A DNA stretch of 64,000 nucleotides from Flavobacteriaceae bacterium (GTDB lineage Bacteria > Bacteroidota > Bacteroidia > Flavobacteriales > Flavobacteriaceae). Position numbers and translations under genes: made by a program. The notes under the pieces were generated by a model. The model worked only from the letters and a program-made list of their open reading frames with translations. It was not told where the DNA came from and searched no databases. The stretch is from positions 1 through 64,000 of the forward strand of contig NVXD01000009.1 in NCBI GenBank assembly GCA_002746415.1. Reading direction: 5' to 3'. Each line of letters opens with the position of its first letter. The stretch's first letter is position 1. Shown here piece by piece: positions 28,714 through 36,306 of the stretch.

Positions 28714-31700
28714 TTATTTTAACAGCCCAAATGGTTTCCCTTTTTCGGGTATGGCTTTACGATTATAGGTAGCATCAAATCTAGGGTCTGAAGTATATGG
28801 CATTCGTTCTTGTTTAATGACTTCAAGGCTTAAAAAATTAAATTCAGAAACTACTTTCCCTGTGATGCGGTATATGCCTTTTCCTCTAAAAGGATGCTTT
28901 TTGGCTACGGGAGGAAAGTGTACGGTATCAATCCAATGTCCTTTTTGATCTAGAAAAGTCCCAAAATACATATTGTCTCCTTTAGATGTTCTTGTTGTTT
29001 TAAGCGTAACTAAATACCCATAAATAACAAGGACTTTATTTATGTAAGAAGTAAAATCTGTGCATAATAGAGTACTTGTAGGGAGCTCTTGTAATAGCAT
29101 AAAAGGATGATACAAGGTAAAATGCAATAATTCTAATTGATCAAACGCATTTTCTAAATCAGTAATAGAAAACTGGGGAAGGCTAAAGTTTTTGATATGT
29201 ACTCTAAAAAGTTGTTGTTGTAATTCATTAATGGCGGTGTGATTGCATTTATAATGCGCTTCCCATAAAAGGCTTCGTTTGTCTTTTGTTGAAAATCGAA
29301 ATGCATTGACACGGATAAGAATATCCAATTGCTCAATGCTAAGAGGTACGCGCTCCATAAAATCCTCTAAAGAGTTAAAAGGGGCTTGGGCACGGGTATT
29401 TATAATTTTAATAATGTTGCGTTTTTCTAACCCATGTAAGTGCTGAAACCCCAAATAAATATCTTTTCCTTTAATAGTAGTTTCAATAGCACTGTTAGCG
29501 ATACAAGGGGCATGTATAGTTGCTCCCTTCATTTTAGCTTCATGTAAATATGTTTCTACACGATAAAATCCACCACCGTTATTAATGGTGGCCACCATAT
29601 ACTCTAGCGGGTAATAGCATTTTAAGAAAAGACTTTGGTATGATTCCACAGCATAAGAGGCGGAATGCCCTTTGGCAAAGGCATAACCAGCAAAACTCTC
29701 TATCTGCCTCCACACTTCAAATAGGACTTCATCTGTTTCTCCTTTTTCACGACAATTGGCAATAAACTTTTCTTTCACTGCTTGAAACTCCGCTCGGGAT
29801 CTATACTTACCACTCATACCTCTACGTAAAACATCGGCCTCTCCTAAAGAAAGTCCAGCATAATGGTGGGCAACTTTGATGACATCTTCTTGATATACCA
29901 TAACTCCATAAGTGTCTGGCATAATACTCCACAGTACTGGATGGGCTTGTTTTCTGCGTTCGGGATCCTTATGGCGTAGGATATATTCCCGCATCATGCC
30001 ACTTTTGGCAACTCCTGGGCGTATAATAGAACTGGCAGCTACAAGGGTTAAATAATCGCTTACGCTTAATTTTTTCAATAGCATGCGCATGGCTGGAGAT
30101 TCTACATAAAAACAACCTATGCATTCTGCCCTTGCTATCATTGCATTAATGTTGGGGTCCTTAAAAAAAGGTTTGGCATTATGAATGTTGGGCAATGTAA
30201 CATTAGGCTGGTTTTCTCTAATAATGCCAATGGCATCTTTTATTTTACCCAACCCCCGCTGTCCTAAAATATCAAACTTATAGAGGCCTACATCCTCGGC
30301 AATATGCATATCAAACTGTACAGTAGGAAAGCCTTTAGGAGGCAAATGTGTTGCCGAAAAATAATGAATGGGTTTTTCGGAAATAAGAATACCGGCTGCA
30401 TGAATGCTTAAGTAGTTGGGTCTGCCGTTTAAATAGGAGGCATAACGAAGCACTAGTTTTGCGATATCATCTAATTGATCAGAGAGGTATTTACCATCAC
30501 TAAGCTTATCAATTTCATATTTGGGTAATCCAAACACTTTTCCCAATTCGCGCACAGCACCACTATGTTTAAAAGTCACATAAGAACCAAGTAATGCAGC
30601 CTGGCTATTGGTGCCAAAAGTTTTAAAAATAAAACTAGTAACATCTTCGCGGTCCCAAGTAGAAAAATCAATATCAAAATCTGGTGGACTAGAGCGGTAT
30701 AAATTCATGAATCGTTCAAAATATAAATCCAGTTCAATAGGGTCTACATTTGTAATTTCCAATAAATAGGCAACAATACTATTGGCTCCACTGCCTCTTC
30801 CCACATGATAATAGTCTTTGGATTTTGCATACTGTATGATCTTCCAATTGATTAAAAAGAAACTTACAAATTGCTGTTTCTTGATCAATGTTAATTCTTT
30901 GTCTAAGCGTTTTTTAATGGTATTGGTTATCACATCATAGCGCATGGGTAATCCTAATTCACATAGCTGAACCAATTTTTTATAATCTTTCTCGGCTGTA
31001 CCAAAAACGGATTTTAAATTTTGATTTTTTCTTTTTTTTGAAAAATCAAACGCAATACTACATTGAGTCAGTAGGCGTTTTGTATTGGCTATTATATGGG
31101 GGTAGTTTTCAAAAGCTTTTTCTAGAGTAGCCATGGGATGCATAATATCTGTTGGCTTGCCCTGTTGTTCTTCCGGGAGTTTGCTCAATAGCATATTGGT
31201 GTCTATGGCACGTAAAAGGCGGTGTGTATTAAAATCTCGTTTGTTGCGAAAAGTTAGGGTGTGGAGTAGTACCAATTTATCTGTAAGCTCACTTAATTTT
31301 GAGAAGTGAAGTTTGTTGATGTCCGCAAGCCCTACACCAATATATTCATGAGCTAAAAAGGAACTTTTTTCTAAAGTCAATAATTGCTCAAAAGGGTAAA
31401 TGACTATGCTGTGTTTAAAAGAAGGGGCTGTTTCCGGAAAGGCTTTCTTTTGATGTAAATGTTCGGAAAGAAACCGATTTAATTCTAAAAAACCATCATT
31501 GTTTTGAGCTAAACAGACATATTTTTGTTGGGCATTGTTTCTAAAATCAATACCAATAATAGGAGTAATATTATATTCAGGAGCTTTTCTAATAAAATTT
31601 AAACAAGCTGAAGTATTATTGATATCGGTTAAAGAAAAATGGATGCAATTATTTTCTTGAGCCATTTGTAGGAGCTCAATTTCTGATATGGTGCCATAGC

Positions 31701-31734
31701 GTAAGCTATAATAGGAATGATTGTTCAGAAACAT
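28714..31734 (-). CDS. DNA polymerase III alpha-type subunit, error-prone (DnaE2-like)
   Basis: At 1006 residues this is shorter than the replicative DnaE of the group (about 1400 or more). The PHP domain is at the N-terminus but degenerate: NNHSYYSLRYG where active proofreading PHP domains have HxH. The polymerase domain has the two catalytic Asp in SPPDFDIDFSTWDRE and a third in YKFDILGQRGLGKI, plus ARAECIGCFYVESPAMR and SFAGYAFAKGHSASYAV. A C-terminal OB-like part follows (VIYGYLVTLKTTRTSKGDN). It is most likely the lesion-bypass partner of DinB, whose gene lies 23 bases upstream. Confidence 0.88.
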   Translation of the reverse strand: MFLNNHSYYSLRYGTISEIELLQMAQENNCIHFSLTDINNTSACLNFIRKAPEYNITPIIGIDFRNNAQQKYVCLAQNNDGFLELNRFLSEHLHQKKAFPETAPSFKHSIVIYPFEQLLTLEKSSFLAHEYIGVGLADINKLHFSKLSELTDKLVLLHTLTFRNKRDFNTHRLLRAIDTNMLLSKLPEEQQGKPTDIMHPMATLEKAFENYPHIIANTKRLLTQCSIAFDFSKKRKNQNLKSVFGTAEKDYKKLVQLCELGLPMRYDVITNTIKKRLDKELTLIKKQQFVSFFLINWKIIQYAKSKDYYHVGRGSGANSIVAYLLEITNVDPIELDLYFERFMNLYRSSPPDFDIDFSTWDREDVTSFIFKTFGTNSQAALLGSYVTFKHSGAVRELGKVFGLPKYEIDKLSDGKYLSDQLDDIAKLVLRYASYLNGRPNYLSIHAAGILISEKPIHYFSATHLPPKGFPTVQFDMHIAEDVGLYKFDILGQRGLGKIKDAIGIIRENQPNVTLPNIHNAKPFFKDPNINAMIARAECIGCFYVESPAMRMLLKKLSVSDYLTLVAASSIIRPGVAKSGMMREYILRHKDPERRKQAHPVLWSIMPDTYGVMVYQEDVIKVAHHYAGLSLGEADVLRRGMSGKYRSRAEFQAVKEKFIANCREKGETDEVLFEVWRQIESFAGYAFAKGHSASYAVESYQSLFLKCYYPLEYMVATINNGGGFYRVETYLHEAKMKGATIHAPCIANSAIETTIKGKDIYLGFQHLHGLEKRNIIKIINTRAQAPFNSLEDFMERVPLSIEQLDILIRVNAFRFSTKDKRSLLWEAHYKCNHTAINELQQQLFRVHIKNFSLPQFSITDLENAFDQLELLHFTLYHPFMLLQELPTSTLLCTDFTSYINKVLVIYGYLVTLKTTRTSKGDNMYFGTFLDQKGHWIDTVHFPPVAKKHPFRGKGIYRITGKVVSEFNFLSLEVIKQERMPYTSDPRFDATYNRKAIPEKGKPFGLLK

Positions 31735-31757
31735 TTTCTCTAGATATATTACAATTA

Positions 31758-32978
31758 CTACTGATGCCTATGTGCCAGTACAATTGGTGGTTCCCCATTA
31801 AAAGGGTTGGTAAAATTGCCAATAGTGCGAGACCCCTCTCCCATAGTTCCTGCTCGCATTATGCTACGGTCTCCATATTTGATACGGATGGTATCCATAG
31901 CTTTGTACAGATTTACAGTTTTCTTTTCATCATCAAATAAATTAATCTGGTATGTGCCTGCGGTTAGACTACTATAGCGAACTCCAACTAAGCGTATCAA
32001 TACTCTCCTGTTGTATAGTTTTTCAAAAAGTTCTAGCACTATAGGAATCAAATGATGGTCTGCTGAGGTGTAGGGTATTTTAAGCTGTTTGGAATAGGTT
32101 TGAAAATCTGAATAACGAATTTTTACGGTAACACAAGAAGTAAGTTTCCCTCCTCTACGAAGTTGAAAAGCTAAATTTTCTGCCATTGCCGTAATGGTGG
32201 TTTTAAGCGTAGCAATGTTGGTAGTGTCTTTCCCATAGGTACGTTCACTGGAAATTGATTTGCGTTCATGGTATGCTATAATGGGGGAGTGGTCTACACC
32301 ATTTGCGCGTTGCCATATTATCCGACCGTTTTTTCCAAAGACAGAGGTCATCATTTCCAATGGCATTTGTTGTACGGTATGCACGGTTTTGACGCCCATA
32401 TTACAAAAATCCCTATAGGTTTTCTCCCCCACCATCGGGATCTTTTTAATGGAAAGTGGTGCTAAAAAGGCTTTCTCATAACCGGTATCAATTCTTAACT
32501 GATTATTGGGTTTGGCTTCATTAGTAGCAACCTTGGAAACGGTTTTGTTTATGGAAAGGCCAAAAGAAATGGGTAATCCTGATTCACGGATAATTTTATT
32601 TCTTAGTTCTGAAGCAAACTTATAGCAGCCAAAAAAGCGATCCATTCCAGTAAGGTCCACATAAAATTCATCCACACTGGATTTTTCTAGAATGGGCACT
32701 TCCCCTTGTAAAATTTCGGTTACCTGTTTTGAAAATTTAGTGTAGGTTCCTGCGTTACCCCGAATATAAATAGCATTGGGGCATAACTGCCTAGCCATTT
32801 TCATAGGCATTCCAGAATGTACCCCATAAGCACGGGTTTCATAACTGGCGGCACTTACCACACCGCGATTACCAGTGCCCCCTACAATTACGGGTTTGTG
32901 TTCTAACCTACTATCTAGCAAGCGTTCACAGGAAACGAAAAAGGTGTCTAAATCTAGATGTAATATGGTACGATTCAT
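31758..32978 (-). CDS. dinB: DNA polymerase IV (Y family)
   Basis: This 406-residue Y-family polymerase has catalytic carboxylates in LHLDLDTFFVSCERL and KSSVDEFYVDLTG, the steric-gate region FFVSCER, the helix-hairpin-helix stretch IKKIPMVGEKTYRDFCNMG, and a little-finger domain (SERTYGKDTT, then RRGGKLTSCVTVKIRYSDF). It copies past DNA lesions at low fidelity. It heads a two-gene unit with the DnaE2-like gene. The upstream region is packed with palindromes (32988-33036) that likely act as operators. Confidence 0.92.
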   Translation of the reverse strand: MNRTILHLDLDTFFVSCERLLDSRLEHKPVIVGGTGNRGVVSAASYETRAYGVHSGMPMKMARQLCPNAIYIRGNAGTYTKFSKQVTEILQGEVPILEKSSVDEFYVDLTGMDRFFGCYKFASELRNKIIRESGLPISFGLSINKTVSKVATNEAKPNNQLRIDTGYEKAFLAPLSIKKIPMVGEKTYRDFCNMGVKTVHTVQQMPLEMMTSVFGKNGRIIWQRANGVDHSPIIAYHERKSISSERTYGKDTTNIATLKTTITAMAENLAFQLRRGGKLTSCVTVKIRYSDFQTYSKQLKIPYTSADHHLIPIVLELFEKLYNRRVLIRLVGVRYSSLTAGTYQINLFDDEKKTVNLYKAMDTIRIKYGDRSIMRAGTMGEGSRTIGNFTNPFNGEPPIVLAHRHQ

Positions 32979-33131: not shown

Positions 33132-33491
33132 TTAAACCGGCTGTAGTTTTTTAAAATAATTATAGATATGCTGTTTTTCTTCTGTAGAAAATTCTTTTTC
33201 TTGAAACCAATCATGGGCTTCTATTTTTTTATTCTCTATTTGGGAATTTCTAATGGCATTTAGACTAACATGGTGCCAATGTTCTCCTTTGTTTCTATAA
33301 ACGGAATACCCTATGTCTTCCACGATATAAGAGGCTTTAGGCTCATTTAGTAAGCGAACGCCATTTTTTAAAATAGCTAAGGTTATGGTTAGGCTAACTA
33401 CTTCTGAAAAAGAATAACGAGCAAAATCAGTAAAACCATTTTGCTTTACATTATACATTTTATCGCCAACTTTTAATTTTTCCATACCCAT
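33132..33491 (-). CDS. Hypothetical protein, 119 residues
   Basis: A soluble protein without recognised motifs (KVGDKMYNVKQNGFTDFARY, GYSVYRNKGEHWHHVSL and an acidic-basic C-terminal helix). An ATG at 33491 or 33485 may be used. I recall similar short proteins near Flavobacteria genes but no function. It lies 153 bases upstream of dinB on the same strand and could share damage control, though nothing shows this directly. Confidence 0.55.
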   Translation of the reverse strand: MGMEKLKVGDKMYNVKQNGFTDFARYSFSEVVSLTITLAILKNGVRLLNEPKASYIVEDIGYSVYRNKGEHWHHVSLNAIRNSQIENKKIEAHDWFQEKEFSTEEKQHIYNYFKKLQPV

Positions 33492-33885: not shown

Positions 33886-34869
33886 CTACTTTTTCATCCT
33901 TTTCAATCTAGTTTGATATGCCTGTAGATAATTACGTTTGGTTTTATCATTTAAATAGGACGCTTTAATCAACGTCTCTATTTTGTCTGAGTTTGAGAGA
34001 AGTTTATTAAAAACGTCACCTTTTTGTTTTTTGCTAATTTCGGCTTTTTCAGCAAGTAAACTGAATTGAACAGAGATACTCCCTTTTGCAAGTTTTTTAG
34101 GCAATAATTTATCATCTAATGCAAAATCTGAATCTTCAATATGTATTCGGGTATTTAACAAATCATAGGCTGGACTCAATCTAAAATCTCCTAGAGGAGT
34201 TTCTATTAATGAGAAATTCTTAAAATGAGCATCACCATTTGAGAACAGATAATTAAAAACAATTAATGAAAAGAGTTTTGGAGCTTCCAATTTATAAGCA
34301 GGCAAGTGTACTTTCATTAGATTGAACATTTCTAGATAATTACCAAGGTATTTGTAATTTTCGCCATGCGTTTGGGGGGTACGACCTGCCAATGAGGCAA
34401 AATCTTCTTTTGCCAATTTGCTACCATTTTTTTTTACATCAAATCGTTTGGTAATATAAGCTGGTTCTCCATTCTTAAAGAAAGTCAATGCATTTTCAGC
34501 AGTTTCTATATTAAATACCTGTCTTGCAATTTGCATAGTAAGGTGTTCATTTGCGGGCATTTGCTCAAGGTTTTTACCAATACTGGGTATCGGCTTCAGA
34601 ATGTATGAACCGCGCTCTCTTTCTTGAATGAGTCGGAGTTTATTTTTATCAAGTAAGACTGAAAATTTTTCCTGTACACCTGAAATTGAAATTCGTTTTC
34701 GATTTTCATTAAATAATTCATCAGTTGCTTCGTTGCTTGAAGGTGATTCGTATGGTAGTATATGATATACTTTTCGTCCATTAAACATTCTTCTTAAACA
34801 AGTTCTACTGTATGTCTCGTGTCCGTACGCTAATGTTCCTGGGCAATATTTTATAATAGGAGAACTCAT
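33886..34869 (-). CDS. hipT: HipT-type toxin kinase (HipA core without N-subdomain 1)
   Basis: This 327-residue HipA-like Ser/Thr kinase lacks the usual N-terminal subdomain, which is encoded separately upstream. The Gly-rich loop contains an SIS motif (Ser61, Ser63) in RISISGVQEKFS, matching the two phosphoserines described for HipT. The catalytic loop is NGDAHFKN (Asp213, Asn218), and the metal-binding Asp236 lies in SPAYDLLN. Cys9 and Cys24 at the start could form part of a small metal site. In the studied E. coli HipBST system the kinase phosphorylates tryptophanyl-tRNA synthetase; the target here is not known. It overlaps hipS by 4 bases. Confidence 0.87.
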   Translation of the reverse strand: MSSPIIKYCPGTLAYGHETYSRTCLRRMFNGRKVYHILPYESPSSNEATDELFNENRKRISISGVQEKFSVLLDKNKLRLIQERERGSYILKPIPSIGKNLEQMPANEHLTMQIARQVFNIETAENALTFFKNGEPAYITKRFDVKKNGSKLAKEDFASLAGRTPQTHGENYKYLGNYLEMFNLMKVHLPAYKLEAPKLFSLIVFNYLFSNGDAHFKNFSLIETPLGDFRLSPAYDLLNTRIHIEDSDFALDDKLLPKKLAKGSISVQFSLLAEKAEISKKQKGDVFNKLLSNSDKIETLIKASYLNDKTKRNYLQAYQTRLKRMKK

Positions 34870-35198
34870 ATATTAACTTGTATTTTTTTAACCGTAACAG
34901 CACCGATAGTGTCGTAACGTGCTGTGATTAGGAGTAAACTAAAGTAGTCATCATTGTCAATACGCATATGTTTGCACACTACTTGTTTATTTGTTCCTTC
35001 TGGTAGCATATTATAGAAAAAAGGAAATAAATAGTTCGATTTATACTCCTGCTTGGTTTTTGGTAGCGTCAAGCTGATAGGTGGCTTACGATTATCTGAC
35101 ATCCACAAATCAAGATATTGATATATAAAACTGCCATCATCATTTTGAGTAAGTAAACCAGCTTTTTCACCTTTATAATATATTTCAGCCTGTCTCAT
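34866..35198 (-). CDS. hipS: HipS-type antitoxin (HipA N-terminal domain protein)
   Basis: This 110-residue protein matches the N-terminal subdomain 1 of HipA (QAEIYYKGEKAGLLTQNDDG, then YLDLWMSDNRKPPISLTLP and FPFFYNMLPEGTN). In HipBST systems this free-standing piece is the antitoxin that neutralises HipT. The ATG overlaps the hipB stop codon by one base (TAATG), and its end overlaps hipT by 4 bases, so the three are translated together. Confidence 0.85.
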   Translation of the reverse strand: MRQAEIYYKGEKAGLLTQNDDGSFIYQYLDLWMSDNRKPPISLTLPKTKQEYKSNYLFPFFYNMLPEGTNKQVVCKHMRIDNDDYFSLLLITARYDTIGAVTVKKIQVNI

Positions 35199-35404
35199 TA
35201 ATCAATCTTTTGTGGTTTCTTTACTTGCAGGCATACTTCCATACCTAAAACATTAGCAATCTTTGTTAATGTCCCAAGAGTAGGGTTAGTCTGCCCCCTT
35301 TCAATTTTATAGAGAGTGTTAACACTTATTCCTGCAAGTTCTGCCAATTGAGTTTGGGTAACTCGAAGCATTTTTCTTCGTTCTTTAATGCTCTTTCCTA
35401 TCAT
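35198..35404 (-). CDS. hipB: HipB-type XRE-family repressor
   Basis: These 68 residues are one XRE helix-turn-helix domain: IKERRKMLRVTQTQLAELAG and VNTLYKIERGQTNPTLGTLTKIANVLG. It is the DNA-binding member of the operon and probably represses it through the palindromes upstream (35414-35548). The C-terminal tail is very short, so neutralisation of the kinase is likely done by HipS. Confidence 0.87.
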   Translation of the reverse strand: MIGKSIKERRKMLRVTQTQLAELAGISVNTLYKIERGQTNPTLGTLTKIANVLGMEVCLQVKKPQKID

Positions 35405-35413
35405 TAGTTATAA

Positions 35414-35426
35414 TATAATGTGATTT
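35414..35426. promoter_or_regulatory. hipB operator half-site (O3)
   Basis: TATAATGTGATTT matches the right half of the perfect operator at 35529-35548. It lies 10 bases before the hipB ATG. The left half is not conserved. Confidence 0.45.
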
Positions 35427-35465: not shown

Positions 35466-35487
35466 AAATCACTATATAGAGTGATTT
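35466..35487. promoter_or_regulatory. hipB operator (O1)
   Basis: The inverted repeat AAATCACT-ATATAG-AGTGATTT lies 61 bases (centre to centre) from the half-site next to hipB and 62 from the next operator. Confidence 0.65.
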
Positions 35488-35528: not shown

Positions 35529-35548
35529 AATCACATTATAATGTGATT
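35529..35548. promoter_or_regulatory. hipB operator (O2)
   Basis: A perfect 20-base palindrome with arms AATCACATTA and TAATGTGATT. It shares the AATCAC/GTGATT ends with O1. Confidence 0.68.
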
Positions 35549-35712: not shown

Positions 35713-36306
35713 ATTCAAAATTTATACTCTGTTTCTACACCTATTAACTCAACGCTAACAGACGAAAGCCTAACAGGTTCTGCGAGTTGGGATAAAACTT
35801 TTGGTAAGTACAAAATCAACTTAAATGCTAATGCATCTTGGTTAAATAATTTTAATCTTGTAAATGATATCGTAACAGCATCAGAATCATTAACCCAACG
35901 TTATAAAGCAAGTGTGTTAACAAACTTTAAAAAAGGACCAAATTTTGAAGTCGGTTACCAACGTTCAATCAGTGATTTTACAAATGCTGATGCTAAAAAC
36001 ACCTTCTATACAGACAAACCCTTTGCGAAATTAGAAACCGTATTCTTAAAAGATTTCTCCTTTGCGTCAGATTATAGTTTTTATAACTATTCTGATGGAG
36101 AGGAAACCTTAAACAACTACTCCTTTTTAAATGCCGATTTCTACTATAAAAAGAAAGATAGCAAATGGGAATATAGGCTTGGTGTTAAAAATATTTTAAA
36201 TACAGAATCAATAAATCAGAATAATTATTCAGAGGTTTTTTCAAGTACATCAGAATATTATGTACAACCTCGTTATGGCTTTGTAACCGTTAAATATAAT
36301 TTGTAA
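35713..36306 (+). pseudogene. C-terminal fragment of an outer-membrane TonB-receptor-type beta-barrel
   Basis: An open frame of about 197 codons with no start at its left end: it begins after a stop at 35710-35712 and reads LYSVSTPINSTLTDESLTGS, later FTNADAKNTFYTDKPFAKLE and YRLGVKNILNTESINQNNYS, ending YGFVTVKYNL. The pattern of alternating strands, the GVKNILNT motif and the terminal aromatic-x-L strand match the last strands of an OMP_b-brl_3/TonB-dependent barrel. The first 600 or so residues expected for the family are gone. It is a relic within the decayed island between hipBST and the PUL. Confidence 0.75.

What the first reader, a model, noticed from the sequence alone, without database searches (positions are those of the whole stretch)
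33886..35404. Three-gene HipBST toxin-antitoxin system in a Bacteroidota genome
The classical HipA is split into HipS (subdomain 1) and HipT (kinase core). HipT has the SIS motif (Ser61, Ser63) in its Gly-rich loop and an intact catalytic Asp213, as in the E. coli HipBST system, where HipS rather than HipB neutralises the kinase. HipB is very short (68 residues), which fits that division of labour. HipT also carries extra Cys residues at its start. The kinase target in this lineage is unknown.
Basis: partly seen in the sequence, partly recalled or inferred. Interest (0 to 1): 0.65.

Follow-up and report, generated by a model that had tools for sequence, protein, structure and literature searches.

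The report
Trp-less split HipBST toxin-antitoxin system
A Bacteroidota genome carries a three-gene toxin-antitoxin switch of the known HipBST kind, but of a separate, widespread branch that lacks the antitoxin residue used in E. coli and is probably controlled by evenly spaced DNA binding sites in front of the genes.

Summary
The genes are real and exactly placed: hipB (68 aa), hipS (110 aa), hipT (327 aa), overlapping by 1 and 4 nt. HipT has S61-I-S63 and an intact catalytic loop. It is a HipBST module, but not of the E. coli type: HipT is nearer the Legionella type (E 1.5e-27) than E. coli's (6e-13, partial), and in a tree of 67 kinases it lies in a third clade (99/96). HipS has Thr where E. 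coli HipS needs Trp; 93 of 93 SISGVQ systems with a parsed HipS lack the Trp and carry E-G-x-Asn. So neutralisation "as in E. coli" is unsupported at residue level. New here: palindromes before hipB spaced 61-62 bp. In relatives the site sequence tracks the HipB helix in 89 of 91 loci and in 12 of 12 classed new loci. Two other types show 40 and 71 bp. In the window one site is perfect and two are weaker. Toxicity, HipS as neutraliser, HipB binding and target are untested. Published work already places HipBST widely in Bacteroidota: a new variant of a known kind.

The parts
35198..35404 (-). hipB: 68-aa Cro/C1-type HTH protein; recognition-helix stretch SVNTLYKIERG
   Evidence: HTH_3 1.9e-17; HipB(Lp) 8ezt 3.4e-07; a designed DNA binder, 8tac, scores higher
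34866..35198 (-). hipS: 110-aa Couple_hipA domain, HipA N-subdomain 1; overlaps hipB by 1 nt and hipT by 4 nt
   Evidence: AlphaFold pLDDT 92.6, best PDB match HipS(Lp) 7vkb_B E 4.4e-11
33886..34869 (-). hipT: 327-aa HipA_C kinase
   Evidence: AlphaFold pLDDT 89.7, PDB 7wcf Z 35.1, 7ab3_C Z 33.6
34681..34689 (-). HipT S61-I62-S63, P-loop double-serine motif (residues 61-64 are the one segment with pLDDT under 50)
34986..35000 (-). HipS E67-G68-T69-N70-K71; T69 is at the place of E. coli HipS Trp65
35406..35425 (.). O1, half-degenerate operator-like site (6 of 10 pairs; 3 of 12 off the clade consensus) close to the hipB start
35467..35486 (.). O2, operator-like palindrome, 9 of 10 pairs, but 4 of 12 off the clade consensus; centre 61 bp from O1
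35529..35548 (.). O3, perfect 20-bp palindrome with the full clade consensus; centre 62 bp from O2. O2 and O3 are the only two places of the search pattern in the held genome

Best explanation
A tripartite type II toxin-antitoxin operon, hipBST, of a third HipBST clade common in Bacteroidota. HipT is an ATP-dependent Ser/Thr kinase that, when free, phosphorylates an unknown growth-essential bacterial protein. HipS, the detached HipA N-subdomain 1, docks beside the Gly-rich loop and holds it in the ejected, ATP-incompatible state, without the Trp wedge of E. coli HipS; the conserved E-G-x-N-K/R turn is the likely contact. HipB represses the operon from palindromic operators spaced about 61 bp, with HipT/HipS probably acting as co-repressors that tie HipB dimers together. 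Shown: gene content, overlaps, catalytic residues, absence of the Trp, clade membership, operator-like sequences and spacing, and their association with the HipB helix. Inferred: kinase activity, toxicity, HipS as the neutraliser, HipB binding, co-repression, target.
For: Pfam/NCBIfam hits and overlapping genes. Full-length match to HipT(Lp) and HipS(Lp); folds match the solved HipS-HipT and HipBST structures. K92, D144, N211, D213, N218 and D236 are kept in 85 of 85 type A kinases. Clade support: A 100/100, A + A' + Arcobacter 99/96. Operators: the pattern, written after the sites were seen, is expected 0.13 times per window in shuffles and found at two places, both upstream of hipB, and nowhere else in the held 3.8-Mb genome at up to 1 mismatch. 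Across 91 A/A' loci, 81 have two own-motif sites 59-63 bp apart and 61 have three in register; the other helix's motif gives 3 and 1; helix and motif agree in 89 of 91. At up to 2 mismatches the stretch downstream of hipT gives 1 of 91 loci and shuffled upstream DNA 3 hits. Second sample: 14 of 14 classed loci agree, of which 12 are new and 2 (L174, L191) repeat earlier loci. The 71-bp spacing of the Legionella-like type equals the published 18-nt O1 site plus 53-bp gap of L. pneumophila.
Against: Nothing functional was tested. The HipS residue that neutralises in E. coli is absent, so HipS could be a mere structural lid here and HipB or the ternary complex the neutraliser. In the window only O3 fits the clade consensus; O2 and O1 are 4 and 3 of 12 off, and at up to 2 mismatches the window shows one site only. 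Helix class and motif change together on the tree only about 4 times (1 on strongly supported branches), so the sign test has no power. In the second sample 61 or 62 is the single best spacing in 9 of 17 A-like loci. In HipT(Lp), mutating the P-loop serine did not stop toxicity, so SIS may not regulate as in E. coli.
Confidence: 0.74

Rival explanations
1. HipBST of the E. coli O127 type: HipS blocks the P-loop by a Trp, SIS gives dual autophosphorylation control, TrpS is the target.
For: Same gene order and SIS motif; fold match to 7ab3_C Z 33.6.
Against: No Trp at the site here or in any of 93 SISGVQ systems with a parsed HipS. Sequence nearest to the Legionella type. The one E. coli-type row (Aliivibrio) branches outside the clade, on a long branch. 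Among 37 split systems found by query or profile, 15 have SIS without Trp, 18 Trp without S-x-S and 4 SIQ without Trp, so the two E. coli features do not travel together in Bacteroidota.
Confidence: 0.08
2. Direct member of the Legionella HipBST(Lp) subtype.
For: Closest solved relative for HipT, HipS and, among Hip proteins, HipB; Lin et al. report HipBST(Lp) homologues widely in the FCB group; both lack the Trp.
Against: A Lp-like system in Bacteroidota (type C, one representative, L012) scores 1.4e-111 to HipT(Lp) against 1.5e-27 here; type C carries SIQ and EG[VI]M and shows 71-bp spacing in 4 loci. Types B and C group together (81/82, not strong) apart from the window's clade. Whether Lin's set of 86 includes this clade could not be read (supplement not held).
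Confidence: 0.12
3. A split HipA that works as HipBA: HipS is only a structural subdomain, and HipB (or HipB plus DNA) neutralises.
For: The site of Trp65 is small or polar here; W32 of HipS aligns with a Trp of E. coli HipA, and HipA has no Trp at the 65 site either.
Against: In four characterised HipBST systems HipS neutralises (PMC6581861 and PMC10653801 passages). HipB is little more than its HTH (match 6-55 of 68), which leaves little to reach HipT (inference).
Confidence: 0.12
4. A decayed or inactive module.
For: Two of three operators are degenerate; a gene remnant may lie next door.
Against: Three open frames and the catalytic set intact; an 84% identical relative (L031) has all three genes in the same order.
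Confidence: 0.05

Closest known systems
HipBST of Legionella pneumophila (7vkb, 8ezr; PMC10653801, PMC9325769)
   Same: Order B-S-T, no Trp in HipS, HipT fold over 301 residues (Z 35.1, 30% identity), three evenly spaced operators before hipB
   Different: HipT SIS instead of SVQ; HipS EGTNK instead of an Ile/Met pair; operator spacing 61-62 instead of 71 bp; much weaker score (1.5e-27) than a Lp-like Bacteroidota system (1.4e-111)
HipBST of E. coli O127:H6 (7ab3-7ab5; PMC6581861, PMC10627512)
   Same: Order B-S-T, SIS P-loop, HipT fold (Z 33.6, 25% identity)
   Different: No Trp65 equivalent; HipB 68 instead of 107 aa; separate branch; target TrpS in E. coli, unknown here
HipBA of E. coli K-12 and Shewanella
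   Same: HipS + HipT together equal HipA; same fold (Z about 23); HTH HipB
   Different: HipA split in two genes; the kinase tree separates it from the Bacteroidota full-length HipAs (100/100)
hipJS (Gerdes 2021, PMC8262856)
   Same: Core kinase without N-subdomain 1 and a separate HipS-like protein
   Different: Bicistronic, kinase gene first, no hipB (paper)

Membership tests
HipBST (tripartite split-HipA TA) | Three-gene operon hipB-hipS-hipT | tested here: met
   overlaps 1 and 4 nt; same order in most relatives
HipBST (tripartite split-HipA TA) | HipT = HipA kinase core without N-subdomain 1, kinase motifs intact | tested here: met
HipBST (tripartite split-HipA TA) | HipS homologous to HipA N-subdomain 1 | tested here: met
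HipBST (tripartite split-HipA TA) | HipT toxic, neutralised by HipS and not by HipB alone | not testable with these tools
   needs expression assays
HipBST(Ec) subtype | Trp at HipS position 65 (present in some, not all, HipS of the published set) | tested here: not met
   T69 at that place; 0 of 93 SISGVQ systems with a parsed HipS have it, 20 of 20 type B do
HipBST(Ec) subtype | S-psi-S P-loop | tested here: met
   S61-I-S63; 15 of 15 A-like loci found by HipS with a parsed loop, 13 of them new
HipBST(Ec) subtype | Groups with E. coli-type HipT | tested here: inconclusive
   the single Aliivibrio row lies outside the clade but on a long branch
HipBST(Lp) subtype | SVQ/SIQ P-loop (as reported for Legionella species) | tested here: not met
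   SIS
HipBST(Lp) subtype | Operator spacing of 71 bp (18-nt site + 53-bp gap, as reported for Legionella species) | tested here: not met
   61-62 bp; type C shows 71
HipBST(Lp) subtype | Groups with Lp-like HipT | tested here: inconclusive
   apart from type C, but B+C joined only at 81/82 and no L. pneumophila row was put in the tree
Autoregulated type II TA operon | Palindromic sites before the antitoxin gene, matched to its HTH | tested here: met
   (sequence association only; binding not tested)

The most novel reading that the evidence does not exclude
The window represents a third, undescribed HipBST clade in which HipS neutralises the kinase by a conserved E-G-x-N-K/R turn instead of a Trp, on a double-serine P-loop, with a target unlike TrpS or GltX. 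HipB and its operators evolve as a swappable module, and each HipBST clade keeps its own operator spacing (40, 61, 71 bp). At 10.5 bp per turn these are 3.8, 5.8 and 6.8 turns, nearly one helical phase, as if HipT/HipS bridged neighbouring HipB dimers in a fixed geometry. This genome would then run two HipBST systems (61 and 40 bp) side by side, insulated by operator sequence and spacing.
Probability: 0.35. Interest if true: 0.66.

Novelty: new variant of a known kind. Interest (0 to 1): 0.46.

Why it matters
Two features of the E. coli system (Trp wedge in HipS, SIS loop in HipT) come apart in Bacteroidota: this clade has SIS without Trp, another type has Trp without S-x-S. That is a natural dissection of how a split kinase is silenced. 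The operator rule (spacing per clade, sequence per HipB helix) makes HipB specificity and HipBST autoregulation testable with short DNA, and may let HipBST systems be classed from promoter DNA.

Tried and rejected
Empty-site comparison: DinB relatives at 62-82% identity were found in 5 of 8 genomes; beyond DinB nothing on the hipBST side aligned in them, apart from kinase-domain paralogy of the 37073-41260 gene in one (L157), so insertion ends could not be read. Searching the same 8 genomes with that gene gave many paralogues (best 52%, in G018 on another contig than its DinB).

Zinc ribbon at the HipT start: considered and rejected for the window, since only 2 of 4 ligand positions remain.

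'Short HipB fits HipS as the antitoxin': rejected (E. coli O127 HipB is 107 aa).

Circular counts, set aside: type A was defined by SISGVQ in HipT plus PEG-x-N in HipS (rule), so SIS and Asn within type A are by construction, and SISGVQEK was also one of the two patterns. Used instead: the recount of all 93 SISGVQ systems with a parsed HipS whatever its sequence, the 37 split systems, and the HipS-based sample. In that sample 'A-like' means no Trp; of 29 loci L174-L202, 22 had a HipS that my expression parsed (18 A-like, 4 type B), 7 did not; one A-like (L177) had no HipB. Asn follows in 18 of 18 A-like, then K/R in 16 of 18. The loop was parsed in 15 of 18. Of 17 A-like with HipB, 3 were not classed N or R. 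L174, L191, L199, L200 and L201 repeat earlier loci, so only one of the four type B loci there is new.

Rows dropped before the counts: L004, L005, L110 (the window itself), L021, L025, L027 (repeats of own-genome genes), L086, L111 (repeats of L006, L048). Two SISGVQ kinases without a parsed HipS (L073, L109) and two short HipA-like ORFs (L028_2337, L029_38) were left unclassed. My first sorting expression missed type B; corrected. Near-identical loci remain in the 91 (for example L037-L041); the thinned test is.

Mobile context: no type A in viral contigs (16 pattern matches, none a relative) or phages (one weak 24% match in 50,697 records); one plasmid record above 60% identity. Strict Bacteroidota -7 box TAnnTTTG: not found in about 300 nt upstream of hipB, one relaxed match. 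PADLOC: HipT to candidate PDC-M03A 6e-9, HipS to PDC-M03B 2e-4. Recurrent neighbours are too few for a claim.

Split versus full-length: one alphaproteobacterial HipA (Shinella) falls on the side of the split kinases, so a single origin of the split is not shown.

Literature: the listings of searches (20 of 23 shown) showed no paper on HipBST in Bacteroidota beyond PMC10653801; supplements and subscription papers were not searchable, so I do not claim it is unpublished. Seen: sections 6, 9-13, 34 and passages of PMC10653801; sections 6, 10 and passages of PMC10627512; section 4 and passages of PMC8262856; passages of PMC6581861; abstract and outline of PMC9325769.

Full report
What is there. 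hipB, hipS and hipT lie head to tail on the minus strand at 35404-33886, overlapping by 1 nt and 4 nt. Domains: HTH_3, Couple_hipA, HipA_C, all above Pfam cut-offs. HipT keeps the P-loop S61-I-S63-G-V-Q-E-K, K92, D144, the catalytic N211-G-D213-A-H-F-K-N218 and D236 (the naming of these motifs is recalled from the HipA literature). AlphaFold models are confident (HipT pLDDT 89.7, HipS 92.6). Their best solved matches are HipT(Lp) 7wcf (Z 35.1 over 301 residues), E. coli HipT 7ab3_C (Z 33.6), HipS(Lp) 7vkb_B (Foldseek E 4.4e-11) and E. coli HipS 7ab3_E (5.7e-9). Residues 61-64 are the only segment of HipT under pLDDT 50, as one would expect of a mobile P-loop.

Which HipBST. HipT matches HipT(Lp) over nearly its whole length at 1.5e-27 and E. 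coli HipT over 190 residues at 6e-13. The window's genome holds four HipA_C genes: this one, a second short HipT and two full-length HipAs. Relatives from Bacteroidota sort into split types. Type A (85 rows with the window; defined by SISGVQ plus HipS PEG-x-N): N-terminus CPGTL or close to it. A' (11 rows; HipS SEG-x-N; 9 by rule, 2 plasmid rows assigned by hand). Type B (20 rows; C-x-x-C-Y...H-x-x-C start): no S-x-S, HipS EGW in 20 of 20. Type C (4 rows; SIQ): HipS EG[VI]M. One representative each of C and B was searched against the PDB: 1.4e-111 and 4e-47 to HipT(Lp). In the tree of 67 kinases A has support 100/100, and A + A' + an Arcobacter plasmid system 99/96; B + C join at 81/82; the one E. 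coli-type row (Aliivibrio plasmid) stands apart on a long branch. So the window's module is a third HipBST clade rather than the E. coli type, and probably not the Legionella type proper.

The Trp. E. coli HipS Trp65 is wedged under the HipT P-loop, and W65A abolishes rescue (PMC10627512). L. pneumophila HipS lacks it and still neutralises (PMC10653801). Here the place is Thr69, followed by Asn70-Lys71. Because type A was defined partly by PEG-x-N, I recounted without that rule: of 95 SISGVQ split kinases, 93 have a parsed HipS, and all 93 have [PS]EG-x-N and no Trp. Within type A the residue at the Trp place is S 55, T 22, A 5 and N, P, I one each. Among the 37 split systems found by query or profile rather than by the SIS pattern, 15 are SIS without Trp, 18 have Trp and no S-x-S, 4 are SIQ without Trp. 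In a sample drawn with HipS instead of HipT, Asn follows in 18 of 18 Trp-less HipS, and S-psi-S stands in 15 of 15 in which the loop was parsed; 2 of these repeat earlier loci.

Operators. Upstream of hipB lie a perfect 20-bp palindrome (O3, 35529-35548), a second with 9 of 10 pairs (O2, 35467-35486) and a third with one intact half (O1, 35406-35425), centres 62 and 61 bp apart. Against the clade consensus they are 0, 4 and 3 of 12 off, so O2 and O1 alone would be weak evidence. The pattern occurs at two places in the held 3.8-Mb genome, O2 and O3. Relatives show the same plan more clearly. HipBs with helix NTLYKIE or close variants (26 loci) have TCACAT-N4-ATGTGA; those with RTLKQFE or close variants (65 loci) have GTGCAT-N4-ATGCAC. 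The better-fitting motif agrees with the helix in 89 of 91, with one tie (L079) and one mismatch where both motifs are weak (L107). Pairs of own-motif sites 59-63 bp apart are in 22 of 26 and 59 of 65 loci, three in register in 18 of 26 and 43 of 65; scanning with the wrong motif gives pairs in 1 of 26 and 2 of 65 and triples in 0 and 1 (up to 4 mismatches in 12 positions in both). At up to 2 mismatches the stretch downstream of hipT gives 1 of 91 loci, and shuffled upstream DNA 1 for one motif and 2 for the other. A motif-free self-similarity scan peaks at 61 bp in A (80 loci) and A' (9), 40 bp in B (18) and 71 bp in C (4), and not at these spacings downstream of hipT. After thinning, A (n = 21, kinases under 75% identity) reaches 13.05 against a largest value of 10.57 in 100 shuffles, A' (n = 5) 13.4 against 11.60, B (n = 13) 13.08 against 11.15; C (n = 4) is marginal, 12.75 against 12.25. 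In the HipS-based sample the mean profile again peaks at 61 bp in 17 A-like loci (61 or 62 is the single best spacing in 9 of them), and helix and motif agree in 14 of 14 classed loci, 12 of them new; the 40-bp peak there rests on four type B loci of which three are repeats. One new locus, L187, pairs an A'-type HipS with an RTLKELE HipB and its motif, so HipB and operators seem to be exchanged together. One search counts four class changes on the HipT tree, one on strongly supported branches, too few for a test of independent events. In the window's own genome the type B locus has its top spacing at 40 bp. L. pneumophila has an 18-nt O1 with 53-bp gaps, that is 71 bp, equal to type C. Type A/A' plasmid loci show 61 as top or joint top in Flammeovirga, Runella and B. 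thetaiotaomicron; Arcobacter is unclear. At 10.5 bp per turn, 40, 61 and 71 bp are 3.8, 5.8 and 6.8 turns: nearly one helical phase. This is arithmetic on three numbers, offered as a hint that HipT/HipS bridge HipB dimers, not as a result.

How it most likely works (inference). Translation is coupled through the overlaps. HipS holds the HipT P-loop out; HipB dimers occupy the operators and, with HipT/HipS, shut the promoter. When HipS runs short, HipT phosphorylates its target and stops growth. For the target there is no evidence here; TrpS and GltX failed to rescue in L. pneumophila, so a different substrate is as likely as either.

Distribution. Type A at 65% identity or more is in 4 of 60 relatives and absent from the one same-genus genome searched, so it is patchy. 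It is on a Flammeovirga plasmid next to a replication gene and was not found in the phage or viral collections.

Known or new. The kind is known: HipBST (PMC6581861), its wide occurrence in Bacteroidota (PMC10653801), and that Trp65 is not universal (PMC10627512). What I did not find in print is this clade, its N-K/R signature, or the per-clade operator spacing and helix-operator coupling. The 86 published HipBST(Lp) systems may include some of these sequences.

Noticed in passing
G000:C17, locus L021 (hipB 880-1107, hipS 1104-1439, hipT 1429-2370): A second HipBST in the same genome, of type B: Cys/Cys/His/Cys start of HipT, HipS with the E. coli-like Trp, upstream self-similarity at 40 bp.
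   Followed up: partly
G000:C17:2501-3136 and G000:C29:13351-14049 (L001, L002): Two full-length HipA genes with upstream HTH-like ORFs of 95 and 117 aa: four Hip kinases in one genome.
   Followed up: partly
L104 87-5626: hipBST lies between an HsdS-like ORF (named by eye) and an HsdR gene whose start overlaps the hipT stop. An HsdR cluster is near 5 of 66 A/A' loci, an integrase cluster near 4, an AEP-TOTE helicase cluster near 3, a Fic cluster near 3 (one protein per cluster Pfam-scanned).
   Followed up: partly
window 28714-32978: A 1006-aa DNA polymerase III alpha-like ORF (named by eye) and a DinB/IMS polymerase (Pfam) side by side, like an SOS mutagenesis cassette, next to hipT.
   Followed up: no
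window 33132-33491: 119-aa ORF between dinB and hipT without a Pfam match.
   Followed up: no
window 35914-36306: 130-aa ORF that by eye looks like the C-terminal end of an outer-membrane receptor, perhaps a gene remnant beside the module.
   Followed up: no
L063, L103: Metagenome bins titled Bifidobacterium breve and Thalassobius carry type A modules 70-72% identical to the window; probably mis-binned or mis-titled Bacteroidota contigs.
   Followed up: no
L166 (Arcobacter cloacae plasmid): A HipBST outside Bacteroidota joins this clade; its HipT starts with C-x-x-C...C-x-x-C, a possible intact zinc ribbon.
   Followed up: partly
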